Below, piece after piece: positions 33,269-53,853 of a stretch of 64,000 nt of DNA. The position numbers and the translations under genes were made by a program. The DNA comes from Mycolicibacterium sarraceniae. GTDB lineage: Bacteria > Actinomycetota > Actinomycetes > Mycobacteriales > Mycobacteriaceae. Each line of letters starts with the position of its first letter. Positions within the stretch are counted from its first letter, which is position 1. The notes beneath the pieces are model-generated. The model was given only the letters and a program-made list of their open reading frames with translations. It ran no database searches and was not told where the DNA came from. The DNA lies in the NCBI RefSeq assembly GCF_010731875.1, contig NZ_AP022595.1, forward strand, positions 3,782,001 through 3,846,000. Direction: 5' to 3'.

Positions 33269-33288
33269 ACTCGCGCCGTATCGCCCTT

Positions 33289-33477
33289 GCGCGGGAGAGC
33301 TTCGTGACAGCCAGTCACGGACGCCGAAGGAGCAACACCTCTCCGTCAACCTCTCAGGCCCCAGGACCGCGCGTGGCCACGATGCCTCTGGAAAGCGGTG
33401 ACCTCACGGTCGCCCGCCCATGGGGAAAGGCGTAACGCCGAATCTCTCAGGCGCCCGGTCCGGGTCGACGACAGAGG
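33289..33477 (+). promoter_or_regulatory. Tandem glycine riboswitch upstream of gcvP
   Basis: Two glycine aptamers in series. Aptamer 1 is closed by GCGCGG (33289-33294) and CCGCGC (33367-33372), with the conserved core CGCCGAAGGAGCAA at 33322-33335 and CTCTCAGGC following. Aptamer 2 is closed by CCTCTG (33385-33390) and CAGAGG (33472-33477), with AACGCCGAATCTCTCAGGC near 33434-33452. The linker is 12 nt. The gcvP GTG is 48 nt downstream. Glycine binding normally turns on glycine cleavage genes. Confidence 0.92.
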
Positions 33478-33525
33478 GAGAGGACGCCGCTGACGGCTGC
33501 GTCCGCCCGAGTCAGGAGACCCTTC

Positions 33526-49490: not shown

Positions 49491-49907
49491 TCAGACGCTG
49501 GGTGAACCGCCACCGGGCCAGGGTGAACGGTGCCTGGATTCCAATTCGGCCAGTGCGCGGCGCAAGGCGTCCGCCTCATCGACTCCGACTCGTTCGACAA
49601 AGTGCACCAGCGCCGCCTGCCGTCCGCCGGAATCGGACGCCTGATCCAGGGCGTCGACCATCAGGCCCGCGACCAGTTCGTCGCGGCCGTGCACCGGTGC
49701 GTATTGATGGGCCCGGTCGTCACGGATCTGGGATACCAGGTTCTTGCGCGCAAGCCGCTGCAAAACCGTCATCACCGTGGTGTAGGCGAGATCGCGCTCG
49801 GTACAGAGGGTTTCATGGACCTGGCGAACCGTCAACGGTTCACCAGCGGCCCATAAGTGGTCCATCACCGCGCGTTCAAGTTCGCCGAGACGAGTCAACT
49901 TGACCAT
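49491..49907 (-). CDS. blaI: BlaI-type transcriptional repressor (Rv1846c-like)
   Basis: Winged-helix repressor of 138 residues of the BlaI/MecI (Penicillinase_R) family. The DNA-binding domain reads LGELERAVMDHLWAAGEPLTVRQVHETLCTERDLAYTTVMTVLQRLARKNLV over about 7-57. The C-terminal helices with LVAGLMVDALDQA form the dimer. In M. tuberculosis Rv1846c represses blaC, its own operon and the ATP synthase region. ATG 49907 lies next to a candidate BlaI operator at 49949. Divergently, about 190 bp away, is an iron-box-regulated gene; the gap carries both systems' control sites. Confidence 0.93.
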   Translation of the reverse strand: MVKLTRLGELERAVMDHLWAAGEPLTVRQVHETLCTERDLAYTTVMTVLQRLARKNLVSQIRDDRAHQYAPVHGRDELVAGLMVDALDQASDSGGRQAALVHFVERVGVDEADALRRALAELESRHRSPWPGGGSPSV

Positions 49908-49948: not shown

Positions 49949-49965
49949 TACTACCGGTCGTCGTA
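49949..49965. promoter_or_regulatory. Candidate BlaI operator
   Basis: TACTACCGGTCGTCGTA carries TACTAC and GTCGTA half sites, an imperfect inverted repeat resembling the TACTACA/TGTAGTA boxes of BlaI repressors. It lies 42 bp upstream of the blaI start, where autoregulation would be expected. Confidence 0.4.
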
Positions 49966-50030
49966 TCCAGCTTTCCGGTAACCGCAGGACGGCGTCGCCC
50001 ACCGGTGTGCCAACTGTGACAGCATTCACA

Positions 50031-50088
50031 TTAGGCAATGCTAACCTTGCCTGGCTCATTATGGTTAGGCTCACCTAACCATAATGAG
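50031..50088. promoter_or_regulatory. Overlapping IdeR (iron) boxes with a 34-bp palindrome
   Basis: CTCATTATGGTTAGG (50055-50069) and CCTAACCATAATGAG (50074-50088) form a perfect 15-4-15 inverted repeat. The stretch TTAGGCTCACCTAA inside it matches 13 of 14 bases of the right part of the IdeR consensus TTAGGTTAGGCTAACCTAA. A weaker second box, TTAGGCAATGCTAACCTTG, lies at 50031-50049. The palindrome ends in the GAGGAGG ribosome-binding site of the gene at 50097. Confidence 0.8.
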
Positions 50089-50096
50089 GAGGTGCC

Positions 50097-50816
50097 GTGA
50101 CCACAGCCGTCGTTGATCCACTGATCGACGGAATGACCATCCGCCGCATGCTGCCCCTGCATGAATCCAGCGGCCGCTTGCGCGGCCTGAGCCCGGATTC
50201 CCCGCGGGTGCACGGAGTGGCGGTCATGGCCGATGTGTCACGGCGTCGATGGTGGGCACTCGACTCGGTGACGACATCGGGCCGGCTGGCGACCATGTTC
50301 GATGCTGCGGTCGACGAACTCGGTGACAGACGAGCCGTCGCCCAGCAGCTCGCCGGCACGTTCACGCACGCCGTGTTGGGCCGGGCAGTCACGTTGTTCG
50401 TGCTCGAGGGCCGGGTGTGGGACACCGGGCCTGGCAACCTCTGGATGCACGTCGACTCGGAGGGCACCATCGACTGGGCCGCGGTGGTGGACCCGACGCT
50501 TCGGGTGCTGCCGGACGATCCGGCAGTGACCGACGTAGTCCGGCTACCCAACGAACTCGCACTGGCGACCTGGACGGCGCACCGCTGCCACCGATCGTTG
50601 GAGCCGATATTCCAGTGCCTGCACGAGCTCAGCCGTCGCGCTCTGTCTACGGCGGCAATGTGGCAGATGGTCGGCTCGGCGGTGGTCATCACCGCGACGC
50701 AGGTTCCCATACTCACCGGCAGCGGTGAGGTGATCTGTATGCGCCGCGGGCAGCTGGTGCTCGACGCGCTGAGCGGGTTCGGCCTTCCGGTGCGGGCGAT
50801 GCGCCGGACGGGGTAG
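50097..50816 (+). CDS. Iron-regulated protein of unknown function (distant FhuF-like pattern)
   Basis: Protein of 239 residues starting at GTG 50097, 4 bp after GAGGAGG. No signal peptide or membrane helix. Segments such as ALSTAAMWQMVGSAVVITA and RAVAQQLAGTFTHAVLGRAVTLFVLEGRVWDTGPGNLWM, seen in parts, recall ferric-siderophore reductase (FhuF-like) proteins, but the C-terminal Cys-Cys-x10-Cys-x2-Cys iron-sulfur motif of FhuF is absent, so no redox role can be claimed. Two IdeR-type boxes overlap its promoter, so it should be induced when iron is scarce. It has no counterpart at this place in M. tuberculosis, where Rv1846c and Rv1847 are neighbours. Confidence 0.7.
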   Translation: MTTAVVDPLIDGMTIRRMLPLHESSGRLRGLSPDSPRVHGVAVMADVSRRRWWALDSVTTSGRLATMFDAAVDELGDRRAVAQQLAGTFTHAVLGRAVTLFVLEGRVWDTGPGNLWMHVDSEGTIDWAAVVDPTLRVLPDDPAVTDVVRLPNELALATWTAHRCHRSLEPIFQCLHELSRRALSTAAMWQMVGSAVVITATQVPILTGSGEVICMRRGQLVLDALSGFGLPVRAMRRTG

Positions 50817-50819
50817 GCC

Positions 50820-50848
50820 TTGCGGGTTAGGCAAGCCTTGCCTATGGT
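50820..50848 (+). promoter_or_regulatory. IdeR-controlled promoter of the small RNA
   Basis: A -35-like TTGCGG (50820-50825) and a -10-like TATGGT (50843-50848) are separated by exactly 17 bp. The spacer holds TTAGGCAAGCCTTGCCTAT (50827-50845), which contains a perfect 8-1-8 palindrome and matches the IdeR consensus at 12 of 19 positions. Binding would block RNA polymerase when iron is plentiful. Confidence 0.7.
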
Positions 50849-50854
50849 AATGCC

Positions 50855-50967
50855 AGAACGTCGAACACCACTAAAGACGAACGGACCGCGCCGGATGTCC
50901 TGAGGGCTGCAGTGACACCCCGGTCCGTGCTGAGGACGGGCCCCGCGGTTGATCCGCGGGGCCCGTC
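50855..50967 (+). ncRNA. mrsI: Probable MrsI small RNA (ncRv11846 position)
   Basis: A 190-bp gap between the iron-regulated gene and the Rv1847-like gene has an IdeR-type promoter, no ribosome-binding site or convincing frame, and a strong hairpin 110 nt downstream. The transcript, starting near 50855, can form an internal stem ACGGACCG (50881-50888) with CGGTCCGT (50921-50928), followed by the terminator stem. MrsI, the iron-sparing sRNA of mycobacteria, lies between Rv1846c and Rv1847 on this strand and is IdeR-controlled. Position, control and architecture agree. The exact ends and seed region are inferred. Confidence 0.72.
50935..50967 (+). terminator. Strong hairpin ending the small RNA
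   Basis: GACGGGCCCCGCGG and CCGCGGGGCCCGTC form a perfect 14-bp stem with the 5-nt loop TTGAT. No T-run follows, as is common for mycobacterial terminators. It ends 38 bp before the thioesterase start. Confidence 0.85.
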
Positions 50968-51005
50968 CCTCATCGTGGGCACCCGCCTGGTGTAGACACA
51001 GATGC

Positions 51006-51434
51006 GTGCAATCAGAGCAGTCACCGATCGAACAGATCGCCTTCTCCGCCCCGTTCGACAATGAGCTCGGCCTGGTGTTCACCGAACTCACCCCGGATGG
51101 CGCCAAGGCGCAGTTGGAAGTCCAGCCCAAGCTGCTGCAGCCGATGGGCATCGTGCACGGCGGAGTCTACTGCTCGATGATCGAATCGATGGCCAGCACG
51201 TCGGCTTTCGTCTGGCTGGCCGCCAACGGCGGCGGCAACGTCGTCGGCGTCAACAACAACACCGACTTCCTGCGGGCGATCTCCGGCGGAACCGTCTACG
51301 GCGTCACCGAACCGGTGCACCGCGGCCGTCGCCAGCAGCTGTGGCTGGTGACGATTCGCGACGATAAGGACCGGCTGATCGCCCGCGGCCAGGTGCGCCT
51401 GCAGAACCTCGAGCCTGAGCCGCCGCAGGGCTGA
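51006..51434 (+). CDS. Hotdog-fold acyl-CoA thioesterase-like protein (Rv1847-like)
   Basis: Protein of 142 residues of the PaaI/YbgC-like hotdog family, matching Rv1847. Core blocks are FDNELGLVFTELTPDGAKAQLEV, LLQPMGIVHGGVYCSMIESMASTSAF (hotdog helix with the HGG motif and catalytic Glu) and NNNTDFLRAISGGTVYGVTEPVHRGRRQQLW. It hydrolyses an acyl- or aromatic-CoA thioester of unknown identity. GTG 51006 starts a frame aligned with the family; there is little ribosome-binding site. It sits between the small RNA terminator and the urease operon (52 bp before ureA), so read-through past the hairpin may matter for its expression. Confidence 0.85.
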   Translation: MQSEQSPIEQIAFSAPFDNELGLVFTELTPDGAKAQLEVQPKLLQPMGIVHGGVYCSMIESMASTSAFVWLAANGGGNVVGVNNNTDFLRAISGGTVYGVTEPVHRGRRQQLWLVTIRDDKDRLIARGQVRLQNLEPEPPQG

Positions 51435-52135: not shown

Positions 52136-53853
52136 CCGAGCTGTCCCGCGCCCGTTACGCCGCGCTGTTCGGGCCCACCACCGGTGACCGGATCCGGCTG
52201 GCCGACACCGACCTGATCGTCGAGATCACCGAGGACCGCAGCGGCGGGCCAGAATTGGCCGGCGACGAGGCGCTATTCGGCGGCGGCAAGGTGCTGCGTG
52301 AATCGATGGGCCAGGGTCGGGCAACCCGGGCCGACGGCGCACCCGACACCGTGATAACCGGGGCGGTGATCATCGACTACTGGGGAATCATCAAGGCGGA
52401 CATCGGTATTCGCGACGGCCGGGTCGTCGGAATCGGTAAGGCCGGAAACCCTGACATCATGTCGGGTGTCCACCCCGATCTGGTGGTCGGCCCATCGACG
52501 GAGATCATTGCCGGTAACGGCCGCATCGTCACCGCAGGCGCCATCGACTGTCATGTGCACCTGATCTGTCCGCAGATCATGGAAGAGGCGATCGGTGGCG
52601 GCATCACCACGATCATTGCTGGCGGTACCGGACCTGCCGAGGGTAGCAAGGCCACCACGGTGACACCGGGCGGCTGGCATCTGGCCCGGATACTCGAAGC
52701 GCTGGACCACTGGCCGCTCAACATCGCTCTGCTGGGCAAAGGTAATACGGTCAACCATGAGGCGATGTGGGAGCAGTTGCGTTCCGGTGCAGCGGGTTTC
52801 AAGTTGCACGAGGATTGGGGGACCACCCCCGCGGCGATCGACGCCGCCCTGACGGTCGCCGAGGCTGCTGGGGTGCAGGTCAACATCCACACCGACACCC
52901 TCAACGAGATGGGCTTCGTCGAAAACACTCTGGCGGCGATCAAGGGCCGCGCCATCCACGCCTATCACACCGAGGGGGCGGGCGGCGGGCACGCACCCGA
53001 CATCATCACTGTCGCCGCCGAGTCGAATGTGCTGCCTAGTTCGACCAACCCGACCCGGCCGCACACCGTGAACACCCTCGACGAGCACCTCGACATGCTG
53101 ATGGTCTGCCATCACCTCAATTCGAGCGTGCCCGAGGATCTGGCCTTCGCCGAGAGCCGCATCCGGCCCTCGACAATCGCCGCCGAAGATCTGCTGCACG
53201 ATATCGGCGCGATCTCGATGATCGGCAGCGACGCCCAGGCCATGGGTCGCATCGGCGAGGTCGTGTTGCGGACATGGCAGACCGCACACGTGATGAAGCG
53301 CCGCCGGGGAGCGTTGGCCGGAGATGGTGCGGCGGACAACTATCGGGTGCGCCGCTACATCGCCAAGTACACGATCTGCCCGGCTGTGGCCCACGGACTG
53401 GATCACGAAATCGGTTCGGTCGAAGTCGGCAAGCTGGCCGATTTGGTGTTGTGGGAGCCGGCGTTCTTCGGGGTGCGCCCGCACGCGGTGATCAAGGGCG
53501 GCATGATCGCCTGGGCGGCGATGGGCGACGCCAACGCCTCGATCCCAACCCCGCAGCCGGTGCTACCGCGACCGATGTTCGGGGCCGCACCAGCCGCGGC
53601 GGCCGCCACCTCACTGCATTTCGTCGCCCCGCAGGCCATCGAGGACGGGCTGGCCGACAGGCTTGCCGTCAACCGCCGCCTGGCCGCGGTGGGCAATGTG
53701 CGCGCGATCGGCAAGGCGCAGATGCCCCTCAACGACGCCCAACCCCGCATCGAGGTCGATCCCGACACCTTCACCGTGCGGATCGACGGGGAGGTCTGGG
53801 CCGAACAACCCGCCACCGAACTTCCCATGGCACAGCGCTACTTCCTGTTCTGA
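52132..53853 (+). CDS. ureC: Urease subunit alpha (catalytic)
   Basis: Catalytic subunit of 573 residues with the dinuclear nickel site. Ligands by comparison with the Klebsiella enzyme (offset +7) are His141 and His143 in CHVHLICPQ, carbamylated Lys224 in GFKLHEDWG, His253, His279 in [15 protein letters not shown], and Asp367 in GSDAQAMGR. Flap residues Cys326 and His327 are in MVCHHLN. All are present, so activity is expected once UreFGD insert nickel. ATG 52132 overlaps ureB and the stop overlaps ureF (TGATG). The gene is intact and uniform with the surrounding operon. Confidence 0.97.

What the first reader, a model, noticed from the sequence alone, without database searches (positions are those of the whole stretch)
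50820..50967. MrsI-like iron-responsive small RNA with complete promoter and terminator
A TTGCGG-N17-TATGGT promoter with an IdeR-type palindrome in the spacer, followed about 110 nt later by a perfect 14-bp terminator stem, lies exactly where M. tuberculosis encodes MrsI (ncRv11846). An iron-regulated protein gene sits directly upstream, so protein and sRNA form a local iron regulon that M. tuberculosis only partly shares.
Basis: partly seen in the sequence, partly recalled or inferred. Interest (0 to 1): 0.7.

Follow-up and report, generated by a model that had tools for sequence, protein, structure and literature searches.

The report
Iron-starvation small RNA, MrsI type
This stretch of a mycobacterial genome very probably encodes the counterpart of MrsI, a known small RNA that spares iron when iron is scarce; its target-binding loop is the same in related genera, yet the standard target site is missing in this species' close relatives.

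Summary
Confirmed: 50820-50973 is very probably the MrsI gene of a rapid-growing mycobacterium. Promoter, IdeR-type palindrome and perfect 14-bp terminator stem are as described; the window's only IdeR-like sites lie in this locus. A covariance model finds the RNA in 258 of 297 genus genomes and in 12 of 17 shown genomes of other genera of the family, with covariation in both hairpins. The apical loop AGGGCUG is unchanged in 72 of 72 aligned copies. Its complement CAGCCC precedes bfrA in 148 of 258 MrsI-positive and 4 of 39 MrsI-negative genomes, but in 0 of 16 of the window's clade, so bfrA repression here is doubtful. The upstream gene, IdeR-boxed in 36 of 36 loci examined, has a predicted FhuF/NIS-synthetase-like fold without FhuF's cysteine motif; 10 of 98 genomes with slow-grower-type MrsI have it, against 154 of 160 other MrsI-positive ones. 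In six relatives the RNA has no IdeR box of its own and begins 3-9 nt after that gene's stop codon, apparently as its 3' end. No expression was measured; the M. tuberculosis sequence could not be aligned.

The parts
50820..50825 (+). -35-like hexamer TTGCGG of the sRNA promoter, beginning 4 nt after the stop codon of the upstream gene
   Evidence: a TTG 16-19 nt before a TANNNT -10 in 61 of 71 loci
50827..50845 (+). IdeR-type palindrome TTAGGCAAGCCTTGCCTAT overlapping spacer and -10
   Evidence: at least 12 of 19 consensus matches in 67 of 71 loci; the other four have none
50843..50848 (+). -10 hexamer TATGGT
50856..50973 (+). predicted MrsI-type sRNA (start inferred from the -10)
50882..50927 (+). 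hairpin 1, carrying the apical loop
50903..50909 (+). 7-nt apical loop AGGGCUG with the proposed seed GGGCUG (50904-50909)
   Evidence: 72 of 72 aligned copies
50935..50967 (+). intrinsic terminator, 14-bp perfect stem, 5-nt loop, U-poor tail
50097..50816 (+). upstream gene, 239 aa, predicted FhuF/NIS-synthetase-like fold, no FhuF-type four-cysteine C-terminal motif
50060..50078 (+). IdeR-type box at the -10 of the upstream gene (within the inverted repeat 50059-50084)
   Evidence: a box in 36 of 36 loci
50031..50049 (-). second, weaker IdeR-like box
50015..50030 (+). CRP-like palindrome TGTGACAGCATTCACA
   Evidence: a match in 29 of 36 loci
49491..49907 (-). BlaI (Rv1846c-type) repressor gene, divergent neighbour
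51003..51434 (+). hotdog-fold thioesterase gene (Rv1847-type), downstream neighbour

Best explanation
This is the MrsI gene of this mycobacterium. With iron, IdeR-Fe(II) sits on the palindrome over the -10 and blocks transcription; without iron the block lifts and a ~115-nt RNA is made, ending at a long GC-rich terminator hairpin. Read-through from the upstream iron-box gene may add to it, since only 3 nt separate its stop codon from the sRNA promoter. The first hairpin displays the loop AGGGCUG, whose GGGCUG pairs with CAGCCC in leaders of mRNAs for dispensable iron proteins and lowers their expression (iron sparing). Shown here: the parts, their conservation and covariation, and a correlation between having MrsI and having CAGCCC before bfrA. 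Inferred: IdeR binding, transcription, pairing and its effect. In this genome bfrA is probably not, or only weakly, a target through this seed; other targets must be assumed. The adjacent IdeR-box gene likely acts in siderophore-iron handling (fold-based inference).
For: Synteny BlaI - sRNA - thioesterase; IdeR-type box in 67 of 71 loci; RNA found in 258 of 297 genus genomes; covariation with 0 of 500 shuffles as high; loop the same in 72 of 72 while its closing stem changes in compensating ways in 5; CAGCCC before bfrA in 148 of 258 MrsI-positive against 4 of 39 MrsI-negative genomes, reversed-pattern control in 1 of 297 (Fisher p 1.7e-8, not corrected for kinship). The published description of MrsI matches (passages of PMC8628891 and PMC11188477).
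Against: No expression data. Own-clade bfrA leaders lack CAGCCC (0 of 16; 12 of the 16 read directly), and 110 of 258 MrsI-positive genomes overall lack a match to that pattern. Computed duplex energies do not beat shuffled leaders in this genome (p 0.46) and do not separate expected from control leaders: the best two expected ones reach p 0.023 and 0.027, while two bfr paralogues without CAGCCC reach 0.007 and 0.010. Extended antisense sites are not enriched in the own genome: 29 including the sRNA itself, against 56 for the reversed pattern. The model that collected the sequences contains the loop, which favours loop-conserved copies. MrsI of M. tuberculosis was not aligned. Four of the 71 loci lack the IdeR box at the RNA.
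Confidence: 0.87

Rival explanations
1. The element is mainly a cis-acting 5' leader or attenuator of the downstream thioesterase (and urease) genes, not a trans-acting sRNA.
For: The thioesterase follows on the same strand within 450 nt in 25 of 30 top-scoring, 30 of 30 slow-grower-like and 10 of 12 other-genus loci, and was found in 12 of 12 other-genus loci within the fetched stretch.
Against: A perfect, covarying terminator separates it from the gene. The most conserved piece is an exposed loop whose complement turns up before a distant gene. A review describes MrsI as an independent small transcript.
Confidence: 0.06
2. MrsI keeps its loop for targets other than bfrA; bfrA pairing is a clade-dependent trait that the window's clade has dropped. 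(A variant of the best explanation, not an alternative to MrsI.)
For: Loop the same in 72 of 72, while CAGCCC before bfrA is found in 0 of 16 own-clade genomes and not matched in 110 of 258 MrsI-positive genomes.
Against: Reviews report bfrA repression in M. smegmatis and M. tuberculosis (passages). The pattern misses other distances and other bfrA starts, and 5-6 nt partial sites (CAGCC, GCAGCC) remain in several own-clade leaders.
Confidence: 0.35
3. A chance palindrome and hairpin, or a decayed relic.
For: Decayed or partial copies exist elsewhere: L117, L111, L100.
Against: Intact promoter, both stems and loop here; strong covariation among relatives.
Confidence: 0.02

Closest known systems
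MrsI (ncRv11846) of M. tuberculosis / M. smegmatis
   Same: Same gene neighbourhood, IdeR site at the promoter, about 100 nt, predicted intrinsic terminator, 7-nt apical loop (descriptions seen as passages)
   Different: Slow-grower-like copies have a 5' GGUCGAG that can fold back on CUCGAUC; the window fold shows no such stem and has the longest 5' leader of the 11 copies printed. No canonical bfrA site in the window's clade; a FhuF-like gene directly upstream
RyhB / IsrR-type iron-sparing sRNAs
   Same: Works alike: metal-repressor-controlled sRNA against iron-protein mRNAs (general knowledge; the IsrR paper PMC9410917 was seen only as a listing with the start of its abstract)
   Different: No sequence relation looked for or shown; repressor Fur there, IdeR here (recalled)
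Rfam sodF_sRNA (RF02790)
   Same: Best-scoring Rfam hit on this stretch
   Different: 29.9 bits, below its 46-bit cut-off; another sodF hit lies on the opposite strand; most likely a shared GC-rich hairpin shape

Membership tests
MrsI | Lies between blaI (Rv1846c) and the Rv1847-type gene | tested here: met
MrsI | IdeR binding site at the promoter | tested here: met
   sequence match only; binding not tested
MrsI | About 100 nt with an intrinsic terminator at the 3' end | tested here: met
   predicted about 118 nt, 14-bp stem
[quoted passage not shown]
   AGGGCUG loop; the letters of the published seed were not seen
MrsI | Sequence identity to ncRv11846 itself | not testable with these tools
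   PNAS paper not held; no genome of 4.4 Mb in one contig with a match among the rows shown
MrsI | Pairs with and represses bfrA | tested here: inconclusive
   Seed complement before bfrA in 148 of 258 MrsI-positive genomes but 0 of 16 of the own clade; partial CAGCC in the window genome; repression not testable
MrsI | Induced by iron starvation | not testable with these tools
   no expression data
FhuF-type ferric-siderophore reductase (upstream gene) | FhuF fold | tested here: met
FhuF-type ferric-siderophore reductase (upstream gene) | C-terminal four-cysteine 2Fe-2S motif (recalled) | tested here: not met
   at most 1 cysteine in the last 40 and 2 in the last 60 residues of the 12 aligned members
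FhuF-type ferric-siderophore reductase (upstream gene) | Pfam PF06276 match | tested here: inconclusive
   window protein 0 families; 3 of 12 members match, best E 1.9e-5

The most novel reading that the evidence does not exclude
MrsI and the FhuF-like gene are one ancestral iron module of the family, older than the genus Mycobacterium. The loop has stayed letter-perfect while its surroundings were rewired: in six sister-clade genomes the RNA has no IdeR box of its own and is apparently the 3' end of the iron-box mRNA; in the window's clade the textbook bfrA site is gone; with slow-grower-type MrsI the gene is mostly missing.
Probability: 0.45. Interest if true: 0.65.

Novelty: new member of a known kind. 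Interest (0 to 1): 0.5.

Why it matters
MrsI is one of few mycobacterial sRNAs with a known role. A covarying family-wide alignment gives it a testable structure model (no Rfam 15 family reaches its cut-off on this stretch) and extends it to other genera. It points to a clade where the loop persists without the canonical bfrA site, a good place to find the targets that hold the loop constant, and to six relatives in which the same RNA seems to have become the 3' end of an iron-regulated mRNA, a natural step between free-standing and mRNA-derived sRNAs.

Tried and rejected
Rfam at gathering and loose thresholds gave no acceptable family. Six model hits in other families of the order (L287-L292) were rejected by eye as chance terminators: no AGGGCTG, no IdeR-like box in what I printed. 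Twenty-six opposite-strand terminator hits were dropped from alignment A2 by a stricter E-value, giving A3 with 72 rows. Duplex energies against shuffled leaders were uninformative. Extended antisense sites in the own genome were not enriched; 3 of 28 of those loci have a plausible start within 75 nt; the one inspected (L211) lies antisense within an oxidoreductase-like frame and was not pursued, the other two were not inspected. No solved structure matches the upstream protein by sequence.

Selections. The 72-row set is not random: the 30 best hits, 30 hand-chosen weaker-scoring genus genomes and 12 from other genera. I chose the 30, partly from its list of genomes without the upstream gene; that none of the 30 has the gene is therefore no evidence, and the 10-of-98 figure replaces it. 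L154 (match at a cut contig end) was dropped from the promoter count, hence 71. L089, L090 and L135 were left out of the 36; L089 and L090 were seen later. The 30 loci are its best matches, so near relatives weigh most.

Literature. No paper on MrsI outside mycobacteria turned up (listings only; two mycobacterial papers hold MrsI once each beside these genus names and were not opened). The library lacks most subscription journals.

Full report
What is there. The window is part of one 4.83-Mb contig of an unnamed mycobacterium; its upstream protein is 90-91% identical to that of M. sphagni, M. rhodesiae and M. vinylchloridicum. The stated letters are right.

More than chance. IdeR-like sites occur at three places in the 64 kb, all here, against a shuffle mean of 0.22. 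The RNA folds 5.7 sd better than shuffles.

Family of the RNA. A covariance model from the window and ten relatives matches 258 of 297 genus genomes, 247 of 275 of the good-quality ones; the 39 misses rescanned at E up to 5 gave one hit near 1e-3 (L043, the partial copy read in L100) and otherwise weaker ones. In the order it matches 45 of 248 genomes: 27 of the genus, 12 of other genera of the same family, 6 of other families. Five further family genomes are listed as misses, four of them of one small-genome genus. The twelve carry the loop and an IdeR-like box (by eye; scores) and have a thioesterase nearby, and 7 of 12 show the upstream gene, one of them only as a fragment at the locus edge. 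The six hits in other families are rejected. In 72 aligned copies (69 distinct) 96.0% of pair cells form standard pairs (shuffled 86.8%), 24 of 30 pairs show double-sided change (shuffled 11.4), and sliding the partners by 1-3 columns drops pairing to 31-46%. The loop AGGGCUG is the same in 72 of 72; its flanking stem is CUG/CAG in 67, CCG/CGG in 4 and CAG/CUG in 1, compensating changes around an unchanging loop. A structure-blind MAFFT alignment of hairpin 1 in 32 copies agrees.

Where it is missing or changed. Of 28 good-quality misses, 27 have BlaI. In many of the loci read by eye, only a short spacer separates BlaI from the thioesterase. L100 keeps hairpin 1 without the terminator; L101 keeps the upstream gene and the IdeR-type box after it but not the RNA; L117 and L111 (3.3-Mb genomes) hold decayed copies.

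An RNA without its own promoter. Of 71 loci, 67 have an IdeR-type box upstream of the RNA. The other four (L019, L021, L022, L039: G098, G240, G283, G294) lack it, and checking showed that this is real. In these and in two more (L089, L090: G167, G267) the RNA core begins 3-9 nt after the stop codon of the upstream gene (read), while that gene's IdeR box, about 780-790 nt before the loop, is intact (15-17 of 19 matches). Here the RNA can hardly have a promoter of its own between gene and hairpin; the simplest reading is that it is the 3' end of the iron-box mRNA and inherits iron control from it. A promoter inside the coding sequence is not excluded. This ties gene and RNA together more firmly than adjacency alone. 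In the window both have boxes.

Target side. bfrA was located in 20 of 20 genomes asked. CAGCCC, the complement of GGGCUG, lies 12-51 nt before the bfrA start in 152 of 297 genus genomes: 148 of 258 with and 4 of 39 without detected MrsI; the reversed-pattern control gave 1 of 297 (Fisher p 1.7e-8, not corrected for kinship). At least 52 of the listed genomes have nine complementary bases, CAGCCCTCA (my count of the rows). In the window's clade (the 16 genomes whose upstream protein is at least 80% identical) none matches, and none of the 12 bfrA leaders that I read there has CAGCCC within 60 nt of the start; several keep CAGCC or GCAGCC. Energy calculations are uninformative.

Mechanism. IdeR repression, release in low iron, loop-mediated pairing and iron sparing is the best account. 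It rests on published MrsI work, of which I saw passages in two reviews (PMC8628891, PMC11188477) and in an expression survey that reports low-iron induction (PMC7029489); the original PNAS paper is not held. For this genome transcription, binding and targets are inferred.

Verdict. A real, well-conserved MrsI counterpart; new member of a known kind. What a specialist may not expect is the spread into other genera with an unchanged loop, the missing bfrA site in this clade, and the sister genomes where the RNA seems to be the tail of the iron-box mRNA.

Noticed in passing
L019, L021, L022, L039, L089, L090: MrsI core 3-9 nt after the stop codon of the FhuF-like gene, without an IdeR box of its own; probably an mRNA-derived form of the sRNA.
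   Followed up: partly
window 33282-33484 (+): Tandem glycine riboswitch aptamers (RF00504).
   Followed up: no
window 52294-52585 (-): Rfam 5_ureB_sRNA hit (71 bits) antisense within a urease-like frame; may only reflect conserved coding sequence.
   Followed up: no
window 50015-50030: CRP-like palindrome upstream of the iron-box gene, found in 29 of 36 loci; L117 seems to keep one although the gene is gone (by eye).
   Followed up: partly
window 49949-49965: Dyad TACTACCGGTCGTCGTA in the BlaI promoter region, with similar sequences in many relatives printed; looks like a BlaI operator.
   Followed up: no
window 50990-50999: GTGTAGACAC palindrome just before the thioesterase start, seen in many relatives printed; purpose unknown.
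   Followed up: no
L170 upstream of bfrA, and several other own-clade bfrA loci: Two IdeR-like boxes in tandem upstream of the -10 of bfrA (by eye), so bfrA may be iron-controlled at transcription instead.
   Followed up: partly
L136, L139, L145: Slow-grower-like MrsI copies have a 5' GGUCGAG; in L136 and L145 it closes the first hairpin on CUCGAUC in the predicted fold, in L139 the pairing is shifted.
   Followed up: partly
L101, L100: Partial losses: IdeR-type box kept without RNA (L101); first hairpin kept without terminator (L100).
   Followed up: partly
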